Shown: positions 16,164 through 45,898 of the stretch, in pieces
How positions within the stretch are numbered: the first letter of the stretch is position 1
Layout: each line of letters opens with the position of its first letter
Assembly (NCBI GenBank): GCA_022496785.1
Contig: SNAP01000001.1
Span: 372,001 to 436,000, forward strand
Length of the DNA: 64,000 nt
Reading direction: 5' to 3'
From: Marinilabiliaceae bacterium JC040
GTDB lineage: Bacteria > Bacteroidota > Bacteroidia > Bacteroidales > Marinifilaceae
Notes under the pieces: generated by a model
The model's database searches: none
What the model saw: only the letters and a program-made list of their open reading frames with translations
Told to the model about the DNA's origin: nothing
Program-made: the position numbers and the translations under genes

Positions 16164-17101
16164 TTGAATGTAAATTTATTTGCAAAACAATATAAAGAAT
16201 TCTTAAGTGGTTTTAATCAATGGGAACAAAAATCGCATTCAAAAGAATATATGTTATTCCCTGGAAATATAGGTAGATATTTAAGTCTAGATGAGACCTT
16301 TCTATCCAATGGAGAGCTTTACACAATACTTTCTAATAAATCAGGAAAAGGAATAAAGGGATCTTTAGTTGCTATGATAAAAGGAGTTAAAGCAGATAAA
16401 ATAATCTCAATATTAAAAACTATACCTAAAGAGGTAATAGATACTGTAGATGAAGTTCGTATTGATATGACTCGTTCTATGAATCTTATAGTAAGTAAAA
16501 GTTTTCCAAAAGCTGAAAAAGTAATAGATACCTTTCATGTTTAAAAATTAGCCTATGATGCTTTACAAAAAATGAGAATAAAACATAGATGGAATGTTAT
16601 TAATGAAGAAACTAATGATATAGATAATGCTAAATGGGAAAAAACTACATATAAACCATTCATGTATGAAAATGGAGATACTAAGAAACAATTATTAGCT
16701 AGAAGTAGATATCTTATATTTAAATCGCCAGATAAATAATCTGTCAATCAAAAACAAAGAGCGAAGATATTGTTTGCACAATTCTCTGATATTAAAGAAG
16801 CTTATTCATTTGTACATTCTTTAAGATTAATATTTAACAATACTAAAGATAAAGATGTTGCGTTAACTAAGTTAGCTGCATTGTATAAGAAAGTAACGGA
16901 TTCTAATTTCAAAGTTTTTAATTCTATATCTGCTACTATATACAGTCATTATAAATTAATTTTGAATTTATTTGATAGAAGAACTACTAATACGTCAGAG
17001 CTATGCTTAGAGGGAGGAGTGATGTATCGTTTTTTTTCTATTTAGTGTTGATAAAATTTATGCTTAGAAATATCTTTCCTCACAATAATATTATATGATC
17101 C
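16164..17101 (+). pseudogene. Decayed ISAon1-family transposase (ORF2), left end missing
   Basis: The translated frame follows an ISAon1-type transposase: AKQYKEFLSGFNQWEQKSHS, LSLDETFLSNGELYTILSNK (first catalytic Asp), RIDMTRSMNLIV (second Asp) and LLARSRYLIFKSPDK. In-frame stops occur at 16542 (TAA after DTFHV) and at 16736 (where a Trp is expected). Near 17000 a deletion removes the catalytic-Glu segment, after which another frame continues LRGRSDVSFFFY. The start at 16164 is only a TTG. The right terminus matches the inverted repeat of the copy at 30343 and ends about 17101. No left terminal repeat is present, so the element is immobile. Confidence 0.82.
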
Positions 17102-29589: not shown

Positions 29590-30027
29590 TTATTGTTCAT
29601 CTTCAATAAAATAATTATCTAAACATTTTAGTATCATTTTTAATAATTGATTTTTGATGTTTTTTTTAATGTTAATTTTATATTTTCTTTTTAAAAATTT
29701 AAATAAGAGCAATATCGTTCTTTTTATAATTTTTTTTAATAGCTTAATTAAAGCTTTCTTTAGATCTTCCTTTATGATTTTTAGGCGATCTTCTTTAAAT
29801 ATCTCATTACTATTTACTATTTCATTCTGATCTCTAATTTCAGATTTAGATGTATAAATAATCTTTGCAATATGATGAATTCGATTTTTATTTAACATTT
29901 TTGAAATAGATGTTCTATTTTCAATTTTGCATTTTTGACATTTTGTGATTCTGTATGTATTGTTACCTTCGATTAACATAGTTGATAACAGGATAACTAC
30001 AAATACAAGCATTAGATTTTTTTTCAT
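29590..30027 (-). CDS. Hypothetical secreted basic protein
   Basis: This 145-residue protein has a clear signal peptide (MKKNLMLVFVVILLSTMLIEG), a CxxC pair (KCQKCK, about 35-38), and a Lys/Ile-rich helical C-terminal half (about 80-140) that could form an amphipathic or coiled-coil bundle. Base composition is extremely AT-rich. I recognise no family. It is the first gene of the accessory region and faces the IS remnant. Confidence 0.5.
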   Translation of the reverse strand: MKKNLMLVFVVILLSTMLIEGNNTYRITKCQKCKIENRTSISKMLNKNRIHHIAKIIYTSKSEIRDQNEIVNSNEIFKEDRLKIIKEDLKKALIKLLKKIIKRTILLLFKFLKRKYKINIKKNIKNQLLKMILKCLDNYFIEDEQ

Positions 30028-30342
30028 ATATATTCTTTTAAGTTAATTAAAATATTATGTATAAATGTAGTTCTGTATTTGTATAAAGGTTTATATTATT
30101 ATTATCTAAGTGATAATGTTTTGATAAGCTTATGTGCTGATTTTCTATCTTTAGTTTAAATAGTTGCTAGTGATCAGAATATGACTTTCTAAGAATTAGG
30201 AGTCTAATATTTATTAGGTATTAACTGTATTACAGAATGTTATGTATCCTGTCAAGAATATGATTTGTATTCATAAATCTATAAAGAATTCCATATAGAC
30301 TGAATATTTGAATTGAGGGATTAGAAGATCTTAATGAGTATA
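30028..30342. other. Intergenic sequence left of the IS remnant
   Basis: AT-rich DNA with no convincing ORF, RNA or repeat. It includes the upstream region of the small secreted protein on the reverse strand. Confidence 0.45.
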
Positions 30343-31123
30343 GGATCATATAATATTCTTGTGTGGGAAATATTTCTAAGTATAAATTTTACCGACTCTA
30401 AATAGAAAAAACGATACCTTACTTCACCCTCTTTGCATAGCACTAAATCCTTTTATGATAACAACTAAAAAATCCTTTCTTCATTTTCCTGATTTATTGG
30501 ATAGTTTTATATAAAGCTCTTCATTGGATAGAGAGGTTTCATCTAGATTTAAATATCTACAAATATTTTCATGGAATAACATATATTCTTTTGAATAAGA
30601 TTTTTGTTCCCATTTGTTAAAACCACTTAAGAATTCTTTATATTATATTTCACATATATTATCATTTATGTAACATAAACATTCTTCGATATTACTATTT
30701 GCTGAATGTGTATAGAGATAGTTCTTTTAAAAAGAAGCAAAATTTCTAGCAATGCAAGATCCTTGACCAGTATTATTTCGATATTTACTTACTTTATCTT
30801 TAATTAATAAACTTTCAAAAGTCTACGTTTGATATGAATAAAGACTGAATGTTTTCTTATTGGAAAATCTTGAATACCAGTACTTTGAAAGAAACTTCTA
30901 GAGATCAGTTTTACTTCTTCATAAACTGAGATACTAATATTTACTTATTCTAAAAATACATCTACTGATGTTTTCGTAATTTTTACATTCATTATTTTGA
31001 AATAGTCAAATAAATCTTTAGATAAAATAAAATCTAAATGAGACTGAATATTGCTATTCTATCTTCAAATTATATAATAACAATGTTACATATGTATTAT
31101 TCCACAAGAATATTTTATGATCC
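30343..31123 (-). mobile_element. Internally deleted ISAon1-family element with terminal inverted repeats
   Basis: Ends are inverted repeats: GGATCATATAATATTCTTGTG at 30343 and its near complement ending TTTTATGATCC at 31123. The reverse strand shows remnants of the N-terminal ORF (IQDFPIRKHSV ... HIKRR) and then the start of the transposase (about 30640 down to 30460, matching 16187-16385). It then jumps by deletion to the extreme 3' end (matching about 17001-17101). The catalytic core is missing and several stops are present. No target-site duplication is visible at the borders. Confidence 0.82.
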
Positions 31124-31710
31124 TTCTGTTGCAGGTGAGTGAATGAGAAAAAGAAAGTATTCCCCTAATAATACTAATCACAGAGTCTAGCTAACTAATG
31201 ATTTTTGAATGAAAGTTAGAATAACGCTTAGCTACTAATAAAATCTGACTAATTACTAGAGTAGGAATTGTATCAGCAATATAATTAATCAACTCTCTCA
31301 TGATTAACATATAATATAAGCACAGTTATATTAATACGATTAAGAATTAATGCTAATTTCTGATAAATTGATGATTATTGATAAAAGATAAGCCTAATGT
31401 TTATTTTTATAATAGATCTTGGATATTTTATCTCTTATTTTATTTCGAAAAATTGTAATAAAATTTTGTTTTATTTTAGTAATTTTGCTTATTTAAGCTT
31501 TCTTTAATAAAATGACAATAGGGAGAGAAGGTGTTGATTTGTTATATGGTTTTTAAAGGATAGCAATTATATAGTAAGAAATTACTACTATTATATTTGT
31601 TTTCCTTATACGAAATGATATACGTAACGATTTAACATAAATACGTTAAATATTAGAACTGAGAAACTGTATATTGTGTAATAAATAAAATAAAAATAAC
31701 TATTGATAAT
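31124..31710. other. Intergenic sequence right of the IS remnant
   Basis: No gene is supported. A -7-like TAATTTTG occurs at 31480-31487 without a fitting -33. A short reverse-strand frame near 31300 (MRELINYIADTIPTLVISQ) is open for about 35 codons and may be chance or a fragment. Confidence 0.4.
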
Positions 31711-32448
31711 ATGAATCATATTTATATACTGATCCTGATTATTGTTCTTGTTGGAGCGATAGCAGGACTAACAAATTACTTGGATTATTTCTACAAAGGC
31801 TTGATTAATAATATATATGAATTTATTAAATATATTTTAAGAGGTATTGGTGCTGCGATACTAGTTCCCTTATTTTTAAATATGCTTTCCAGTAGCTTAA
31901 TTGAATATTCAGAAGGCTATAATTATATCAATTACTTTGTTTTTGCTGGATTTTGTTATATAGCTGGATATTTTTCTGATAGGTTTATTAGTACTGTTGG
32001 AGAAAGAGTTCTTAAAGACTTGGAAAAAGCGAATAAAAGGATTAAAGTAGCAATGACTAGTTCAAAACAGAATGAAGAAAAATTAGATTTACTAGTTTCT
32101 GCTGAATCTGAATTTGATGAAGAATTAGTGACAACTACGGAACTTGATTTGAGTAAGTTCAAAGAGAATATGAAATTTGCAGATGATGATATCGAATACC
32201 AAGTAAACAATGTTTTTTTGTCATTCTTAGGTAAATATAAATTAAGAACGGTAAAAGGGATTGCAAAAGAATTAAATTACTCATTAACGGTAGTTGAATC
32301 AATACTTAAAGTATTATTTAATCAAGGATTTGTGAAGTCATTTACTGATAAAAATGGAAAAACTCTTTGGACAACTACAAATCAAGGGAAATTATTTGCT
32401 GAAGAATTGAATAAAAATAATCATAATAACAAGAATAAAATTGAATAA
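31711..32448 (+). CDS. Membrane protein with YEATS-associated-type N-terminus and C-terminal winged helix
   Basis: A 245-residue protein. Residues 1-100 hold three or four membrane helices, including the conserved-looking GIGAAILVPLFLNMLSSSLI and FVFAGFCYIAGYFSDRFI. I associate this pattern with the transmembrane region of proteins annotated as YEATS-associated. A coiled linker follows (about 100-165), then a winged-helix domain (about 168-235: FLSFLGKYKLRTVKGIAKEL ... VLFNQGFVKSFTDKNGKTLWTTT). A membrane anchor joined to a DNA-binding-type fold suggests a sensor or effector. The next gene, 162 nt on, encodes a DUF4062 protein in the same direction. Function is inferred only. Confidence 0.7.
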   Translation: MNHIYILILIIVLVGAIAGLTNYLDYFYKGLINNIYEFIKYILRGIGAAILVPLFLNMLSSSLIEYSEGYNYINYFVFAGFCYIAGYFSDRFISTVGERVLKDLEKANKRIKVAMTSSKQNEEKLDLLVSAESEFDEELVTTTELDLSKFKENMKFADDDIEYQVNNVFLSFLGKYKLRTVKGIAKELNYSLTVVESILKVLFNQGFVKSFTDKNGKTLWTTTNQGKLFAEELNKNNHNNKNKIE

Positions 32449-32610
32449 CAATAAATAGACGTAATTCACAGCGATTTTGGTAATTTGAGCTATAAAGCAT
32501 TTTATAAACAGTCGAGTGTTTTGATTGTGAAGAGTTCATAAATTCTTTACTATGCATATTCGTGCTGTTGGCAGCAAATTTAAAGAAAAGGAAAACAAAT
32601 AAAATTAAAG

Positions 32611-33582
32611 ATGGCAAAACCTAGAATTTTTATTAGTTCTACATTTTATGATTTAAGACAAGTTCGAGCTAACATAGACCTTTTTCTAGAACAATTAGGA
32701 TATGAACCTGTCAGAAATGAAGAAGGAGATATTCCATATGGTAAAGAAGATGCTCTTGAGGAGTATTGTTATAAAGAGATTAAAGGTGTGGATATTTTAG
32801 TTTCTATAATTGGTGGTCGATTTGGTAGTGAATCTAAAGGGTCAAATAGTTCAATATCGCAGTTAGAATTAAAGACTGCATTAAATGAAGGAAAACAAAT
32901 CTATATTTTCATAGAAAAGAACGTTTTATCAGAGTATGAGACATATCTATTGAATAAAAACAACGAATCTAAATATAGATATGTTGATGATAAAAGGATT
33001 TACGAATTTATTGAAGAAATAAAAGGACTAAATACTAATAATATTATTCAAGGATTTGAAACGGCCTCAGATATAACTAAGTATTTAAAAGAACAGTTTG
33101 CAGGACTATTTCAAAGGTTTCTTGAAGAACAGACAAGGATTAAGGAAGTGAGTTTAATTAGAGGACTTGAAAAAACAGCACAGACTCTAAATAAGCTGGT
33201 GAATTTTTTAAGTGATGAAAATAATGATCAAACTGAAGAGATTAATAGGATTTTGACAATTAATCATCCTTTAGTCGAAAGGTTAAAAAATGAATTAGAT
33301 ATCCCTTATAATTTCTATGTTGAGGGTTTCGAGGATTTAAATGAATTATTAAAAGCTAGAAGTTTTAAATATGATGATTCTAGAGATTTTCCTTTTGAGG
33401 AGTCTGAACCTGAATATAATTGGATACGTGAAGTAAATCGCAAAAAATATATACTTAGGGTAAATAAAGAAATATTTGATTCCGAAGAAAAGTTAAAGTT
33501 TATTAGACGTTCTGATTGGAATGAGGATTTTGTAACATTAAATATTACTGAAACTTCACCTGAAGATGATTTGCCATTTTAA
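32611..33582 (+). CDS. DUF4062-domain protein
   Basis: A 323-residue soluble protein. The N-terminal domain (1-125) has the DUF4062 signature: RIFISSTFYDLRQVRANID, LGYEPV, C-Y-K-E-I-KGVDILVSIIGGRFG, SISQLELKTALNEGKQIYIF. DUF4062 is a Rossmann-like domain found at the N-terminus of NTPase-type conflict proteins in bacteria and of NPHP3/NWD1 in animals. Here it stands alone, followed by a helical region (125-205) and a C-terminal domain of unknown fold (about 205-323) with acidic patches. It is paired with the preceding membrane/winged-helix gene. Confidence 0.78.
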   Translation: MAKPRIFISSTFYDLRQVRANIDLFLEQLGYEPVRNEEGDIPYGKEDALEEYCYKEIKGVDILVSIIGGRFGSESKGSNSSISQLELKTALNEGKQIYIFIEKNVLSEYETYLLNKNNESKYRYVDDKRIYEFIEEIKGLNTNNIIQGFETASDITKYLKEQFAGLFQRFLEEQTRIKEVSLIRGLEKTAQTLNKLVNFLSDENNDQTEEINRILTINHPLVERLKNELDIPYNFYVEGFEDLNELLKARSFKYDDSRDFPFEESEPEYNWIREVNRKKYILRVNKEIFDSEEKLKFIRRSDWNEDFVTLNITETSPEDDLPF

Positions 33583-39435: not shown

Positions 39436-40560
39436 TTAAGGTTCCCAACCCACATATCCTTGAGTATCAATTAAGAATTGACATTTATTTTTAAGACTTA
39501 AAAAGCATAAATCTAAAAATTTGTCATTGTTAGGATTGTGATTTCTACAAAGAGCAATAATAGCTTCGTTTGTAAATCTGTTAGGTGCTATATTAAATAC
39601 CTTAGACCAGTAGTCAATGATGATTTTTTTTCTTAATAATAATAAATTAGGTGAAGGTATTTTATCTGTTTTGCTTGAATTGTATTTTTGTTTTGTAGGT
39701 AAAAGATTCCAGAAATCGTTATTACCCCAAAGAGAATAAGGGATTATATGATCTATATGCATATCATCTTTTATTGTTTTATTTGACCATGCACATTTAA
39801 GTTCTTCTTTTCTTTTAAGATCAGTGTATATTTTTTTTATATCTTTTGTATCTCTAGAGTATTCATCTTTTGTTTGGAGTACTTGGTATATTTCACTCTT
39901 GCTTATATTCTTATTGATTTGTTGTCGGTATGAGAAATCTATCCATTGAAATAATAGGGCATTATCTCCATTTATATAAGATCCTAATAGTGTGAATGCA
40001 GAATAGTATGATTTTGGAATAGTGTATGTTCCACAAGATTCTACTATATTTATTATTGATAAATCTTTCTTAAGACTCGTTGTCTTTCTATCATTCTGAT
40101 ATTTGAAGATTTCTCCTTTTTTGCCAATTGCACTACCTATGTATTTCATAGGATTATTTATAATAGTTGTGTTTATATCTCTAATTAATTTTATTACATC
40201 TTCTTTTAGTGTATCTGGTATTTTATTATTCTGAAGATCTTTATAAAATTCAGGGAAACCTAGACTTTCTTCGTAGTGAGAGATTATTGGTATTAAATGT
40301 TTTTGAAATGATAAGCTGTTTTTATTACCTGTAATTTGTGGAATTTGCTTTTTGTAAGCTAGTATGGGATAGTAGTATTTTATCCAGAAGATGACTAATA
40401 GACCTATTGGAAGTTGTTTTGTGTTTTCTTCTTTTACATCAGTACAGTAATGATCGTATTTATGAATGCTCTCAATTACAGAACGTATAAGAGCAAATTT
40501 GTAGGTAGCAGTTTTACTTTCTTTGTTTATGATATAGGTTAAGTCTTTTAATGTTTGCAT
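39436..40560 (-). CDS. HNH endonuclease-domain protein with helical N-terminus
   Basis: This 374-residue protein has an HNH nuclease motif at about 262-300: the CAWS start, HIDHIIPYSLWGNNDFWNLL, then KQKYNSSK. DHIIP, NLLP and N-x-x-K are the typical ββα-metal residues. The first 250 residues are helical and unrecognised. Stand-alone HNH proteins of this layout are common in phage-defence and restriction islands. It is transcribed against its neighbours, with no methylase nearby. Function as a nuclease is likely; target unknown. Confidence 0.75.
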   Translation of the reverse strand: MQTLKDLTYIINKESKTATYKFALIRSVIESIHKYDHYCTDVKEENTKQLPIGLLVIFWIKYYYPILAYKKQIPQITGNKNSLSFQKHLIPIISHYEESLGFPEFYKDLQNNKIPDTLKEDVIKLIRDINTTIINNPMKYIGSAIGKKGEIFKYQNDRKTTSLKKDLSIINIVESCGTYTIPKSYYSAFTLLGSYINGDNALLFQWIDFSYRQQINKNISKSEIYQVLQTKDEYSRDTKDIKKIYTDLKRKEELKCAWSNKTIKDDMHIDHIIPYSLWGNNDFWNLLPTKQKYNSSKTDKIPSPNLLLLRKKIIIDYWSKVFNIAPNRFTNEAIIALCRNHNPNNDKFLDLCFLSLKNKCQFLIDTQGYVGWEP

Positions 40561-41934: not shown

Positions 41935-42513
41935 ATGAAAAATCGTCCATGCCTTTCTAAAGGATTAGATTCTGAAACTTTTAAGAAGTTCTATTATTTA
42001 AAAAAGGAGTTAGTTGATTTCTGCAAAGATAATTCTATGTCTTCGGCAGGTTCTAAAGCTGATTTAAATAATCGTATAATACATTTTTTAAACACTGGAG
42101 AAAGACTTAGATTTATTAACATAAAAAATGGTAAGATTGATAAAAAGAATCTATCTCTAAATACTATAGTTGAAGAGAATTTTCGCTATTCAGAGTTTAA
42201 GAGGGAATTTTTTAAATCTATAATTGGAAGTAAATTTACCTTTTGCGTTCCTCTGCAAAGATTTATTAAGGCTAATGTTGGCAAGAAGTATTCTGATATT
42301 GTTGATGAATGGTATAGGATACAGGACAACAAGAAAAGGAATAAAGGTAATAGTGTTATTGATTCTCAGTTTGAGTATAATACTTATATACGTGATTTCT
42401 TTAAAGAGAATAAAGGTAAGAGTCTAAAAGATGCTATTAAATGTTGGAAGTATAAGAAAAGTATTGAAGGTAATAATAGGTATGAAGAGGGAGATTTGAG
42501 TGCATTGATTTAG
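41935..42513 (+). CDS. SAP-domain protein (DUF6434-like)
   Basis: A 192-residue basic protein. Residues 8-60 form a SAP-like helix-extension-helix (SETFKKFYYLKKELVDFCKDN, then GSKADLNNRIIHFLNTGE). The remainder carries FTFCVPLQRFIKANVGKKYS and QFEYNTYIRDFFKENKGKSL followed by DAIKCWKYKK, which I associate with the DUF6434/SAP family. SAP motifs bind DNA. It lies 72 nt upstream of the Nudix gene, in the same direction, so it may belong to the Nudix-helicase unit. Confidence 0.7.
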   Translation: MKNRPCLSKGLDSETFKKFYYLKKELVDFCKDNSMSSAGSKADLNNRIIHFLNTGERLRFINIKNGKIDKKNLSLNTIVEENFRYSEFKREFFKSIIGSKFTFCVPLQRFIKANVGKKYSDIVDEWYRIQDNKKRNKGNSVIDSQFEYNTYIRDFFKENKGKSLKDAIKCWKYKKSIEGNNRYEEGDLSALI

Positions 42514-42585
42514 TTTTGTTTTTAAAAAAATTGTTTTATGTTCTATTATTTATTTAATTCGTAGAGCATATAAACAAAATGAAAA

Positions 42586-42987
42586 ATGAAGCATATAGAG
42601 GTTGTAGCTGCAATTATTATTAAGAATGGAAAGATTTTATGTACTCAGAGAAATTTTAATAAATACGATTATATTTCAAAAAAGTTTGAATTTCCTGGTG
42701 GTAAAGTTGAAAAAGGAGAGTCTAATGAAGAGGCTATCATAAGAGAGATAAAGGAAGAATTATCTATTAATATAACAGTTAATAAGGAGTTCTTATCTGT
42801 TTATCATGAATATCCTGATTTTCATTTGACAATGCATTCTTTCTTATGTAGTGCTGAAGATAAAACGTTAAGCTTAAATGAACATATAGACTATAAATGG
42901 CTTTTAAAAGATGAATTATCTAGTTTAGATTGGGCAGGCGCAGATTTACCTATTGTTGATAAGTTAATAAGTGAGTTCCATGAGTGA
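42586..42987 (+). CDS. Nudix (MutT-like) pyrophosphohydrolase
   Basis: This 133-residue protein has the Nudix box GGKVEKGESNEEAIIREI followed by KEELS (GX5EX7REUXEE intact), preceded by EVVAAIIIKNGKILCTQR as in MutT/CTP-type (deoxy)nucleotide pyrophosphohydrolases. Such enzymes hydrolyse oxidised or modified nucleoside triphosphates. The stop overlaps the downstream helicase start, so the pair is translationally coupled. Coupling to a PLD-helicase suggests a role in a DNA-processing or defence unit rather than general nucleotide sanitation. Confidence 0.88.
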   Translation: MKHIEVVAAIIIKNGKILCTQRNFNKYDYISKKFEFPGGKVEKGESNEEAIIREIKEELSINITVNKEFLSVYHEYPDFHLTMHSFLCSAEDKTLSLNEHIDYKWLLKDELSSLDWAGADLPIVDKLISEFHE

Positions 42988-45898
42988 TTTTTCTTCTATT
43001 TTTAGACAAAGCCTTGAAACTGGATTTATTGATAGTTCTATTCGTTCGGATTATTCTTATAGACCTCAATTTCTTGTTAATGATAAACTTACTGGAACGA
43101 AAGTATTAACAACTATAAATAATGAACTGAGTTCATGTTCTGAATTTTGGTTTTCTGTTGCTTTTATTACTCATTCTGGACTCTCTACTCTTAAGGAAAG
43201 TTTGAAAGAATTAGAATTGAGGGGAATAAAAGGTAAAATTTTGGTTTCTCAGTATCTGAATTTTACTCAACCTGAGGCTCTAAGAAAGTTGATTGCTTTT
43301 AATAATTTGGAAGTTAGAATTGATGTTAATAATAGTTTCCATTCTAAAGGGTATTTATTTAAAAAAAAGGATCATTATAATTTAGTAGTAGGTAGTAGTA
43401 ATCTTACAGCTAGTGCTTTATGTTCTAATAAAGAATGGAATTTAAAAGTATCTGCCAGATTCGATAGTCATATTGTTGAAAGAGCTATTCATGAATTTTC
43501 TTCTTCTTTTGAAAATGCTTGTCTTGTAGATAGAGATTATATTGATAGATATAATCAGATATATTTACAACAAAAATATATTAAAGCAAAAACTCCAGAA
43601 CTTTTTAAGCTTAGTGATACGATTAAGCCTAATAGAATGCAGGAAGAAGCTTTGAGAAATCTTATTAGTTTGCGTAAAAATAATAAAAAAAAGGCTTTAC
43701 TTATTTCGGCAACAGGTACTGGCAAAACTTTCTTATCTGCATTTGATATTAAAAATGTGAATCCCAAAAGAGTTCTTTTTGTTGTTCATAGATTGAATAT
43801 AGCCAAAGCTGCTATGAGAACGTTTAAGGCTATTTTTGGAGAATCTAAATCTGTTGGTATATTTTCTGGAAAGAATAAAGATTTTTATTCTGATTTTTTA
43901 TTTTCTACTGTTCAAACAATATCTAAACCAAAATATTTAGAATTATTTAAATCTAATGATTTCGATTATATTGTGATTGATGAGACTCACAGAGCAGCAG
44001 CTCCATCGTATCAACGTGTATTTGATTATTTTAATCCTGATTTTCTTTTAGGTATGACAGCCACTCCAGAAAGAATGGACGGTTTAGATATATTTAAATT
44101 ATTTGATCATAATATTGCTTATGAGATTCGTTTACATTCTGCTTTGGAAGAGAATATGTTGTGCCCTTTTCACTATTTTGGAATTTCAGATGTTTCTGTT
44201 AATGGTGATTTATTGACTGATAGTTCTAATTTTAATCTTATAAATCGTAATGAAAGAGTTAATAGAATTATTGAAAAAGCAGACTTCTATGGATGTGATG
44301 ATGGTGAAGTGAGAGGTCTTGTTTTTTGTTCTAATGTTGAAGATGCTAGAGATTTATCAAAAAGATTTAATGAGAGGAATTATAAAACTGTAGCTCTAGC
44401 TGGTGATAATAATGAACATGAGAGAGAGCTTGCTATTCAGCGTTTAGAATCTGATGATATTAACGAGAAATTAGATTATATTTTTTCAGTAGATATTTTT
44501 AATGAGGGTATTGATATTCCAAAAGTAAATCAGATTATTCTCTTGAGACCTACAGAATCTGCTGTTGTTTTTGTTCAGCAACTTGGAAGGGGTTTGAGAA
44601 AAATAGAAAATAAAGAGTATTTAACTGTTATAGATTTTATAGGCAATTATAATAATAATTTCCTTATTCCTGTTGCTCTTTTTGGTGACACATCATTTAA
44701 TAAAGATAAGCTTAGAAATCTTATGAGTGGTGCTAATACATATATACCAGGAGATTCTACTATTAACTTCGATAGAATTAGTAAAGAACAAATTTTTAAG
44801 GCTATCGATGGTGCTAATATGAAAAATAAGAAGGATCTGGTGAATGATTATTCTATGCTTAAATATAAGTTGGGAAGAATTCCTATGATGATGGATTTTA
44901 TTGATTATGGTTCTAGAGATCCGTATTTATATATTAGTTATTCTAAGTCTTATTTTAATTTTGTTGCGAGCCAAGAGAAATCTTTTAAGTCTAAAATTAG
45001 TGCTAGTGATATTAAAATTCTAGAGCTTTTCTCAATAGAAATTAATAATGCTAAACGAGTTGAGGAATGCTTAATTATAGAAGATTTATTAACATATGGA
45101 AAAGTGAATGTTGATAAATTTAAAAAGAAAGTTTTTGAGAGATATTCTTTTGTTTTGAACGATGAAATTATTGATTCTTGTATTATCAATTTGAATTTTG
45201 ATTTTATTAGAGAAAAAGGACCGGATAGGAAGTATATAAGTTCAGGTAGAGCTAATAATTTAAGTATTGTTACTGTTTCAGGAAATTATATTTATATAGA
45301 TGATAGTCTTAGATCTTCTTTAAAGAATCCTGTTTTTAAATCTTTTTTATTGGATAATATTAAATATTCAATTTCCACTTTTGATAGAAAATTTACTAAT
45401 TCAATTTATAATGAAGGTTTTATTCTTTACAATAAGTATTCAAGAAAAGATGTTTTTAGAATTTTAAATTGGAAAGAAAATCCTGTTGCTTTAAACGTTG
45501 GTGGATATATGATGAATTCTAATAAGAAAGATCTTGCGATTTTTGTGAACTATGACAAAGAGGAGGATATTGCAAGTACCACTAAGTATGAAGATTCTTT
45601 TGTTAATAACTCCTTGTTTAGTTGGATGTCTAAAAATAATAGAACTCTTAAGAGTCCAGAAATATTAGCTATTAGAAATTATAAAGAAGGATTGAGAATT
45701 CCTCTTTTTATTAAGAAGAGTAATGACGAAGGTCAAGAATTTTACTATATGGGAGAAGTTACACCAGTTGAAGATAGTATTAAAGATTCTTTTATTTTCG
45801 ATGATAAAAAGAATAAGAAAATCCCCGTTGTTAGAATTGATTTTAATTTGAGTACTCCTGTTGAGGATAATCTTTATTCTTATTTGACTGATAAATAA
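42980..45898 (+). CDS. PLD-like nuclease/superfamily 2 helicase fusion (DUF3427-type)
   Basis: A protein of 972 residues from the ATG at 42980; a GTG at 42971 would add three. The N-terminal PLD-like domain has FHSKGYLF and VVGSSNLTAS (HxK ... GSxN). The SF2 helicase core has Walker A SATGTGKT (about 238), DETHRAAA, GMTATPER and QQLGRGLRK (about 530). A long C-terminal region (about 590-972) resembles the DUF3427-type tail, ending with VTPVEDSIKDSFIFDDKKNK. The start overlaps the Nudix stop by 8 nt. The fusion suggests ATP-driven DNA translocation coupled to cleavage, probably defensive. The catalytic role of the PLD domain is not verified. Confidence 0.88.
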   Translation: MSDFSSIFRQSLETGFIDSSIRSDYSYRPQFLVNDKLTGTKVLTTINNELSSCSEFWFSVAFITHSGLSTLKESLKELELRGIKGKILVSQYLNFTQPEALRKLIAFNNLEVRIDVNNSFHSKGYLFKKKDHYNLVVGSSNLTASALCSNKEWNLKVSARFDSHIVERAIHEFSSSFENACLVDRDYIDRYNQIYLQQKYIKAKTPELFKLSDTIKPNRMQEEALRNLISLRKNNKKKALLISATGTGKTFLSAFDIKNVNPKRVLFVVHRLNIAKAAMRTFKAIFGESKSVGIFSGKNKDFYSDFLFSTVQTISKPKYLELFKSNDFDYIVIDETHRAAAPSYQRVFDYFNPDFLLGMTATPERMDGLDIFKLFDHNIAYEIRLHSALEENMLCPFHYFGISDVSVNGDLLTDSSNFNLINRNERVNRIIEKADFYGCDDGEVRGLVFCSNVEDARDLSKRFNERNYKTVALAGDNNEHERELAIQRLESDDINEKLDYIFSVDIFNEGIDIPKVNQIILLRPTESAVVFVQQLGRGLRKIENKEYLTVIDFIGNYNNNFLIPVALFGDTSFNKDKLRNLMSGANTYIPGDSTINFDRISKEQIFKAIDGANMKNKKDLVNDYSMLKYKLGRIPMMMDFIDYGSRDPYLYISYSKSYFNFVASQEKSFKSKISASDIKILELFSIEINNAKRVEECLIIEDLLTYGKVNVDKFKKKVFERYSFVLNDEIIDSCIINLNFDFIREKGPDRKYISSGRANNLSIVTVSGNYIYIDDSLRSSLKNPVFKSFLLDNIKYSISTFDRKFTNSIYNEGFILYNKYSRKDVFRILNWKENPVALNVGGYMMNSNKKDLAIFVNYDKEEDIASTTKYEDSFVNNSLFSWMSKNNRTLKSPEILAIRNYKEGLRIPLFIKKSNDEGQEFYYMGEVTPVEDSIKDSFIFDDKKNKKIPVVRIDFNLSTPVEDNLYSYLTDK

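What the first reader, a model, noticed from the sequence alone, without database searches (positions are those of the whole stretch)
31711..33582. Candidate conflict module: YEATS-associated-type membrane/winged-helix protein plus stand-alone DUF4062 protein
The first gene has a 3-4 TM region of the YEATS-associated type but ends in a winged helix instead of a YEATS domain. The second carries DUF4062 alone with an unknown C-terminal domain. The pair sits between a decayed IS and another fragment-rich spacer, in an accessory region. A membrane protein beside a Rossmann-like sensor resembles nucleotide- or stress-gated membrane effectors. The function is inferred; sequence shows only the domains and adjacency.
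Basis: partly seen in the sequence, partly recalled or inferred. Interest (0 to 1): 0.75.

Follow-up and report, generated by a model that had tools for sequence, protein, structure and literature searches.

The report
Defence enzyme wearing host SSB tail
One of the two genes encodes a likely NAD-destroying anti-virus enzyme that ends in a copy of the short tail by which the cell's own single-stranded-DNA-binding protein recruits its partners, which suggests the tail is how the enzyme finds its target; the other gene seems to be an unrelated neighbour.

Summary
Both genes are real and the domain calls hold: 31711-32448 is a YLATT membrane domain plus winged helix; 32611-33582 is a DUF4062 protein. 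The pair is not a conserved module: 0 of 80 fetched DUF4062 loci hold a YLATT homologue, and in a 296-genome sample of the phylum the families share 2 genomes, about the chance number. DUF4062 is not a sensor but a TIR-like NADase domain, described in 2026 as the anti-phage system Swarozyc (PMC13174449).
The unreported part is the protein's end. After a C-terminal domain that matched nothing in the PDB, it ends in EDDLPF, the C-terminal tip of bacterial SSB. 41 of 46 proteins with this domain end that way, across eight phyla; 1 of 30 complete DUF4062 proteins with other C-termini does. Where a tipped SSB was found, the tip residue equals the same genome's SSB in 30 of 31 genomes, including Ala/Ala and Val/Val cases; on the tree this rests on few independent changes.
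Best reading: a stand-alone abortive-infection enzyme that docks, by a host-matched SSB tip, on SSB-tip-binding proteins of phage or host. The docking target is inferred.

The parts
32611..33582 (+). DUF4062 gene, 323 aa: TIR-like enzyme with own C-terminal domain and SSB-like C-tip
   Evidence: PF13271 E 2e-16; relatives with the same C-terminal domain in 45 genome loci and 9 viral contig loci
32611..33060 (+). TIR-like catalytic domain (residues 1-150)
   Evidence: AlphaFold model; Foldseek, 5 hits at E 0.001 or less, TIR domains and DNPH1; VIA Z 13.0 DNPH1, Z 11.8 SPARTA TIR at 20% identity
32866..32868 (+). Glu86 codon, candidate catalytic residue
   Evidence: E in 43 of 43 aligned proteins
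33064..33213 (+). long stalk helix (residues 152-201)
   Evidence: AlphaFold model; low confidence from about residue 171 on (pLDDT 49-63)
33232..33552 (+). C-terminal domain of unassigned fold (residues 208-314)
   Evidence: residues 200-323 modelled alone, mean pLDDT 80; no PDB match by profile (best E 0.55), Foldseek or VIA (best Z 5.0)
33562..33579 (+). SSB-like C-terminal tip, residues 318-323 (Glu-Asp-Asp-Leu-Pro-Phe), just before the stop
   Evidence: 41 of 46 proteins sharing the C-terminal domain end in a hydrophobic residue-Pro-Phe; the genome's own SSB ends ESEIEDLPF
31711..32448 (+). neighbouring YLATT-winged-helix membrane protein gene, 245 aa; probably not part of the system
   Evidence: PF20303 E 1.5e-29; not linked to DUF4062 elsewhere
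32449..32610 (.). 162-bp gap between the two genes
   Evidence: no terminator-like site
30342..31124 (.). decayed ISL3-type insertion sequence remnant
   Evidence: near-perfect inverted arms; 84-86% copy pieces in the genome near window 16167-17101 with DDE_Tnp_ISL3 hits

Best explanation
The DUF4062 gene is a stand-alone, horizontally spread anti-phage gene of the Swarozyc kind. Its N-terminal TIR-like domain is the killer, probably hydrolysing NAD+ once several copies are brought together. A stalk and a distinct C-terminal domain follow. The protein ends in a mimic of the C-terminal tip of the host's own SSB. The tip most likely docks the enzyme onto proteins that bind the SSB tip. These could be phage recombination or replication proteins that depend on host SSB, or host SSB partners at single-stranded phage DNA. 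Clustering there would switch on NAD+ loss and abort the infection. Shown here: the domain, the predicted TIR-like fold, the invariant Glu, the tip, its conservation and its agreement with host SSB. Inferred: NADase activity of this subfamily, anti-phage role, docking by the tip, and what it docks on. The YLATT-winged-helix gene next door is treated as a separate accessory gene.
For: DUF4062 hit and TIR-like fold of the model. Glu86 in 43 of 43. DUF4062 proteins are NADases that defend against phage (PMC13174449). KpSwz (PDB 10wc) matches residues 5-104 by profile, E 7e-6. Tip: 41 of 46 proteins with this C-terminal domain, against 8 of 1927 other ORFs of 100 aa or more in the loci held then, of which 3 are DUF4062 pieces and 1 is SSB itself. 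Pro-Phe is invariant in the 39 tipped rows of A2, while positions -7 to -30 are variable. Tip residue equals a PF00436 SSB of the same genome in 30 of 31 genomes where a tipped one was found (0 of 200,000 shuffles reach it; outside Bacteroidota 12 of 13, 2 of 200,000; the shuffles ignore relatedness). Mobility: nearest relative of the window protein is from Chlorobiota, 78%; copies lie on viral contigs, one between terminase and portal genes, one beside Thoeris genes. SSB's tip is the docking site of many partners (PMC10164576 abstract), and phage RecT-type proteins read the last seven residues of host SSB (PMC10711431 passages).
Against: No activity or defence test of this subfamily is known to me. 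In the profile alignment the KpSwz Glu (chain residue 82, which I take for E97) falls on window Gln84, and invariant Glu86 lies two residues later, so the catalytic Glu is not proven by alignment. 5 of 46 relatives lack the tip, and so do 2 of 9 on viral contigs (L257 still ends in Pro-Phe). Agreement with host SSB is phylogenetically thin: only 3 independent contrasts on supported branches, on average 1.9 the same way and none opposite, sign test median p 0.5. L071 disagrees (IPF against LPW). In 7 of 38 genomes no tipped PF00436 SSB was found; in five of these a DUF3127 protein ending DDLPF exists, agreeing for four DUF4062 proteins and disagreeing for L034 (FPF). That search looked only for Asp-Leu/Phe-Pro-Phe ends, so these four cannot count as independent support. 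Neighbour genes show no fixed partner (no Pfam family in more than 3 of 148).
Confidence: 0.55

Rival explanations
1. Host-guard reading (a narrower form of the best explanation, host partners only): the SSB-like tip parks the enzyme on the host's own SSB partners (RecQ, PriA, RecO, RecG, polymerase chi and the like), so that it sits at forks or repair sites and fires when a phage attacks, replaces or overloads that machinery. The activating signal is read by the unassigned C-terminal domain, and the tip gives only location.
For: The tip agrees with host SSB, as expected if host partners are the target. Many host proteins dock on the tip (PMC10164576 abstract; the list of names is recalled except RecG). 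The C-terminal domain has conserved residues of its own: His219 and Pro220 are invariant in 43 rows.
Against: Nothing in the sequence separates host from phage docking partners. A protein that binds essential fork proteins in every cell would need tight control, which was not tested.
Confidence: 0.25
2. The tip is self-regulation: the SSB-like tail folds back on the protein's own C-terminal domain or on the TIR domain of a neighbour and keeps the enzyme off, as SSB's tip contacts its own OB domain (recalled). Agreement with host SSB would be shared ancestry or composition.
For: The tip goes with this one C-terminal domain (41 of 46) and is nearly absent elsewhere (1 of 30 complete rows). The tree gives only 3 independent contrasts for host agreement.
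Against: L014 and L083 carry the tip without a detectable copy of this C-terminal domain. Tips of unusual type (Ala, Val) fit the unusual SSB of the same genome, which self-binding does not predict. The last residues are low-confidence in the models.
Confidence: 0.12
3. The two genes form a membrane-effector/NADase module.
For: Same strand, 162 bp apart, no terminator-like site between; both families look like conflict genes.
Against: 0 of 80 DUF4062 loci hold a YLATT homologue; overlap in a 296-genome sample is at chance level; YLATT-winged-helix genes elsewhere have other neighbours.
Confidence: 0.04
4. The TIR-like domain is not an NADase but a nucleotide N-glycosidase of the DNPH1/nucleoside deoxyribosyltransferase kind acting on free or phage-modified nucleotides.
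For: Best structural matches are DNPH1 (Z 13.0); SPARTA TIR and CMP N-glycosidases follow at Z 11.8, close to a tie. Glu86 sits as Glu-x-x-x-Ala, a spacing I recall from both groups.
Against: KpSwz and human TEP1 hydrolyse NAD+ (PMC13174449; three other human DUF4062 proteins tested there did not); shared fold does not tell the substrate.
Confidence: 0.1

Closest known systems
Swarozyc (KpSwz, DUF4062 TIR-like NADase; PMC13174449; PDB 10wc, 11cq, 11cv)
   Same: DUF4062 domain, TIR-like fold, helical stalk, stand-alone protein of similar length (PDB chain 326 aa, window 323 aa), C-terminal domain after the stalk
   Different: No sequence match beyond residues 5-104; the C-terminal domain could not be matched to the KpSwz AUX domain; SSB-like C-tip, which the preprint's main text does not mention ('SSB' 0 occurrences; supplements not looked at). 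Whether KpSwz itself ends in such a tip was not seen
C-terminal tip of bacterial SSB (docking site of SSB-interacting proteins)
   Same: Acidic residues, then Leu/Ile/Val/Ala-Pro-Phe at the very end, after a variable linker; residue type equals the host SSB in 30 of 31 genomes with a tipped SSB
   Different: Carried by a TIR-like enzyme; no SSB domain was detected in it
Plant NLR integrated decoys (for example RRS1-WRKY; recalled)
   Same: An immune protein with a piece of a host target fused to it
   Different: Here the piece would be six residues, in bacteria, and the decoy role is untested
YLATT (PF20303) membrane proteins
   Same: Gene 1 has the full domain, E 1.5e-29
   Different: Followed by a winged-helix-like region; no YEATS domain in the protein

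Membership tests
Swarozyc / DUF4062 TIR-like NADase | DUF4062 domain | tested here: met
   PF13271, 60.4 bits against cut-off 24.7
Swarozyc / DUF4062 TIR-like NADase | TIR-like fold | tested here: met
   Predicted model; Foldseek and VIA matches to TIR domains and DNPH1 over residues about 2-168
Swarozyc / DUF4062 TIR-like NADase | Catalytic Glu (E97 of KpSwz) | tested here: inconclusive
   Glu86 invariant in 43 of 43, but two residues from the KpSwz Glu in the profile alignment, where the window has Gln84
Swarozyc / DUF4062 TIR-like NADase | C-terminal HTH/winged AUX domain that binds phage portal | tested here: inconclusive
   No sequence match outside residues 5-104; no convincing fold match; KpSwz did not appear in the fold results, whose library ends 2026-04-08
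Swarozyc / DUF4062 TIR-like NADase | NAD+ hydrolysis and protection against phage | not testable with these tools
   needs experiment
SSB-type C-terminal tip | Acidic residues then hydrophobic-Pro-Phe at the C-terminus | tested here: met
   EDDLPF in the window; 41 of 46 relatives; an acidic residue at -4 to -6 in 40 of 40 tipped loci
SSB-type C-terminal tip | Preceded by a variable, unstructured linker | tested here: met
   High entropy at positions -7 to -20; pLDDT 57 and 66 for the last block of the two models
SSB-type C-terminal tip | Same tip as the host SSB | tested here: met
   30 of 31 genomes with a tipped PF00436 SSB, out of 38 examined; few independent changes on the tree
SSB-type C-terminal tip | Binds SSB-interacting proteins | not testable with these tools
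   needs peptide binding
YEATS-associated membrane conflict systems | YLATT domain | tested here: met
   PF20303 E 1.5e-29
YEATS-associated membrane conflict systems | YEATS domain in the same protein | tested here: not met
   no YEATS hit at E up to 1
YLATT-DUF4062 two-gene module | Genes kept together across genomes | tested here: not met
   0 of 80 DUF4062 loci; overlap at chance level in a 296-genome sample

The most novel reading that the evidence does not exclude
The DUF4062 subfamily is an immune receptor with a six-residue integrated decoy. It displays a copy of the host SSB tip as bait for phage single-strand annealing and replication proteins, which must bind host SSB. Ring-shaped phage annealing proteins would collect many copies at once and so switch on the TIR-like NADase, much as the 12-fold portal collects KpSwz. 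The tip changes when the gene moves to hosts with a different SSB tip.
Probability: 0.25. Interest if true: 0.88.

Novelty: new variant of a known kind. Interest (0 to 1): 0.68.

Why it matters
It names a likely sensing element for a widespread but barely studied class of NADase defence genes, and it is directly testable by deleting or swapping six residues. If the tip is bait, bacteria guard a central hub of DNA metabolism by copying its docking tag, and host range of the defence gene would depend on the tag. It would also give phages a clear escape route to look for: loss or change of SSB binding.

Tried and rejected
Pair as a module: rejected. YLATT relatives in plasmids, phages and viral contigs: none found (the last uses short exact peptide patterns and is insensitive). 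Close DUF4062 relatives in plasmids: three Enterococcus records, matching residues 3-167 only, and none for three other members at E 1e-15; in phages two Acinetobacter records, partial. A single-protein scan of viral contigs found none; the alignment scan found 18. Three weak YLATT hits in the class sample (L003-L005) are FTR1-like permeases by eye and were dropped. Three weak hits below the cut-off in the order sample and the weak hits of four genomes in the phylum sample (L213-L217) were not followed, though the latter are counted in the 8.

C-terminal domain: no solved relative by profile, Foldseek (none at E 0.001 or less) or VIA (best Z 5.0, AcrID1; not a convincing match). An absent match does not show a new fold.

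Shared winged helix between gene 1 and DUF4062 proteins that end in one: profile comparison gave probability 5%, so not claimed. A fixed operon partner: 148 neighbouring ORFs (those of 100 to 1499 aa, up to two per side, from 43 loci) gave no Pfam family in more than 3 and no PADLOC family in more than 3.

Literature: of nine papers that hold 'DUF4062' one is on its enzymology (listing). None joined SSB tail, phage defence and NADase or TIR (one search listed one phage-engineering review, not opened). That is the basis for 'not found in print', within that open-licence library only. 'YLATT' and 'pYEATS' gave nothing relevant.

Rows dropped: one search returned 80 loci, which is also its cap, found through two short peptide patterns. 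A2 holds 43 of 46 proteins with the C-terminal domain; L043 (same tail as L041), L055 (near copy of L054) and L064 (no Met start, 383 aa) were left out. Of the 45 loci with the C-terminal domain, 36 were given to the SSB search, plus L083; left out were the five without tip and L051, L054, L055, L092. L041 and L043 count as two genomes though their DUF4062 ends are identical. A few SSB hits of genomes that already agreed were not fetched. Where a genome has several SSBs, any one counts as agreement (this decided L075 and L081). L045's SSB reads EGLPFN and counts as untipped. The DUF3127 step searched only for Asp-Leu/Phe-Pro-Phe ends, so its agreements are not independent; with it the total would be 34 of 36. 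It entered the tree test as host state for five rows.

Full report
OBSERVATION. Gene 1, 31711-32448, is a YLATT three-TM domain (PF20303, E 1.5e-29) followed by a winged-helix-like region with only weak hits; no YEATS domain was found in it. Gene 2, 32611-33582, has DUF4062 at residues 5-90 (E 2e-16) and nothing else above a cut-off. Each is the only match to its family in the 2.56-Mb assembly. The upstream 'decayed IS' is an ISL3-type remnant.

THE PAIR. No ORF in them is a YLATT homologue; the search found only the window's own copies and G558's. In 295 genomes of the order, YLATT passes its cut-off in 2 and relatives of the DUF4062 protein occur in 18; only the window's genome has both. In a 296-genome sample of the phylum, 68 have DUF4062 and 8 have YLATT, and 2 have both: the own genome and G652, there on different contigs. 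About 1.8 would be expected by chance. Four of the 8 YLATT genomes rest on weak hits. YLATT-winged-helix proteins elsewhere sit beside an AAA/OLD-TOPRIM ATPase with HSDR_N pieces close by (L031) or a C92 peptidase (L210). So each may be a conflict gene, but the pair is not a module.

WHAT DUF4062 IS. A 2026 preprint (PMC13174449; seen: abstract, parts 1-2 of 6 of the text, Discussion, and a term search) shows that DUF4062 is a TIR-like NADase family. It tested five proteins with similar C-terminal domains in E. coli and saw strong defence, most notably with two of them ('Swarozyc'). It found that KpSwz is switched on by phage portal through a C-terminal HTH/winged domain. The window protein matches KpSwz (PDB 10wc) only over residues 5-104. 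The AlphaFold model (pTM 0.49) gives a TIR-like domain (1-150), a long helix (152-201, low confidence in its second half), a C-terminal domain and a loose tail. The first domain matches DNPH1 (Z 13.0) and SPARTA TIR (Z 11.8) (Foldseek). Glu86 is invariant in 43 of 43 relatives; position 84 is Gln in 39 and Asn in 4. In the alignment with KpSwz the KpSwz Glu falls on Gln84. I take chain residue 82 for E97 because the construct starts at residue 15, which is inference. Glu86 has the Glu-x-x-x-Ala spacing that I recall for SARM1 and deoxyribosyltransferases. NADase activity is therefore likely but not shown.

THE TIP. The protein ends Thr-Ser-Pro-Glu-Asp-Asp-Leu-Pro-Phe. The genome's SSB ends ESEIEDLPF. 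Of 80 loci plus the window, 46 proteins share the C-terminal domain by profile, and 41 of these end in hydrophobic-Pro-Phe; the five without are L049, L059, L064, L065 and L069. The tipped ones come from eight phyla (origins). In 1927 other ORFs of at least 100 aa from the loci held then, 8 end so, of which 3 are pieces of DUF4062 genes and one is SSB. Among DUF4062 proteins from other searches, 30 rows with a complete C-terminus (L023 and L180 are one gene; 10 more rows were cut off and 4 of 44 loci gave no frame) include one with the tip, L014. Among the 18 further proteins of 250 aa or more without this domain, one has it, L083. In 39 tipped rows Pro and Phe never vary, position -4 is Asp in 34, and positions -7 to -30 vary. 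This is the build of a functional C-terminal tag after a linker, as in SSB. On viral contigs 9 relatives with this domain were found and 7 end with the tip; L252 and L258 share the same tail.

MATCH TO THE HOST. PF00436 SSBs were taken from 38 genomes (37 loci plus the own genome). In 31 a tipped SSB was found, and in 30 its last three residues equal those of the DUF4062 protein. The matches include Ala-Pro-Phe in an anammox planctomycete, Val-Pro-Phe in an acidobacterium and a cyanobacterium, Ile-Pro-Phe in several phyla and Leu-Pro-Phe in Acinetobacter. The exception is L071 (IPF against LPW). No shuffle of 200,000 reached 30; outside Bacteroidota 12 of 13 agree, reached by 2 of 200,000; shuffles ignore relatedness. 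Of the seven genomes without a tipped SSB, six were searched for genes ending Asp-Leu/Phe-Pro-Phe. Five hold a DUF3127 protein ending DDLPF, which equals the DUF4062 tip in four and not in L034 (FPF). Because the search asked for that ending, these are a lead on where the tip is carried, not extra proof of matching. Caution: the tree of the DUF4062 proteins needs only 5 changes of tip among the 34 compared rows and gives 3 independent contrasts. Of these on average 1.9 go the same way as the host and none the other way, which is too few for significance. The clearest contrast is L061 (Ala, host Ala) beside two Acinetobacter (Leu, host Leu), support 98/94. Presence of the tip is secure; its adaptation to each host is well supported by counts but thin in independent events.

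MOBILITY. The window protein's nearest relative is from Chlorobiota (78%), while the three full-length relatives found in the sample of its own order are 54-57% identical. One relative lies between large terminase and portal genes on a viral contig (L254), another next to Thoeris ThsA and ThsB genes (L251). Neighbours of the chromosomal copies are diverse, with scattered PADLOC hits and no fixed partner.

HOW IT MAY WORK. SSB's tip is the docking point for many genome-maintenance proteins (PMC10164576, abstract seen). Phage RecT-type annealing proteins recognise the last seven residues of host SSB, which limits their host range (PMC10711431, passages seen). A TIR-like enzyme that carries the same tip should dock on such proteins. 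Since TIR activation needs oligomerisation (PMC13174449, introduction), docking on a multimeric phage protein, or on many SSB partners at single-stranded phage DNA, is a sensible trigger. Which of the two it is cannot be told from sequence. Self-regulation by the tail is possible but explains the host match poorly.

VERDICT. The pair is ordinary adjacency. The DUF4062 gene is a new variant of a known kind: a Swarozyc-like TIR-like enzyme with a C-terminal domain that matched no solved structure and with an SSB-tip mimic. I found no report of this in the library searched.

Noticed in passing
41935-45898: SAP/DUF6434 protein, NUDIX protein (PADLOC PDC-S07, E 5.5e-49) and a PLDc-ResIII-DUF3427 helicase side by side: a candidate defence cluster.
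   Followed up: partly
39436-40560: 374-aa protein with an HNH_4 domain and weak Cas9-HNH similarity.
   Followed up: no
16164-17101: Second decayed ISL3 transposase copy, next to tRNA-Cys; the copy upstream of the finding lies about 1 kb from tRNA-Met.
   Followed up: partly
L228, L231, L240, L237, L227: DUF3127 proteins that end in DDLPF, in genomes where no tipped PF00436 SSB was found: DUF3127 may be an SSB-like hub in these bacteria.
   Followed up: partly
L254:771-5478: Tipped DUF4062 gene between terminase and portal genes on a viral contig: possible superinfection exclusion by a prophage.
   Followed up: partly
L251:476-6295: DUF4062 relative beside KAP NTPase, ThsA macro and ThsB TIR genes; its own end is not a Pro-Phe tip.
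   Followed up: partly
L014:1501-2679: 393-aa DUF4062 protein with no detectable copy of this C-terminal domain but an SSB-like DDLPF end: perhaps an independent gain of the tip.
   Followed up: no
L211:1441-2514, L212:1441-2574: YLATT proteins with a long C-terminal part instead of a winged helix, in what looks by eye like the same setting in two genomes.
   Followed up: no
29590-30027: 145-aa ORF on the minus strand with no Pfam hit at E up to 1.
   Followed up: no
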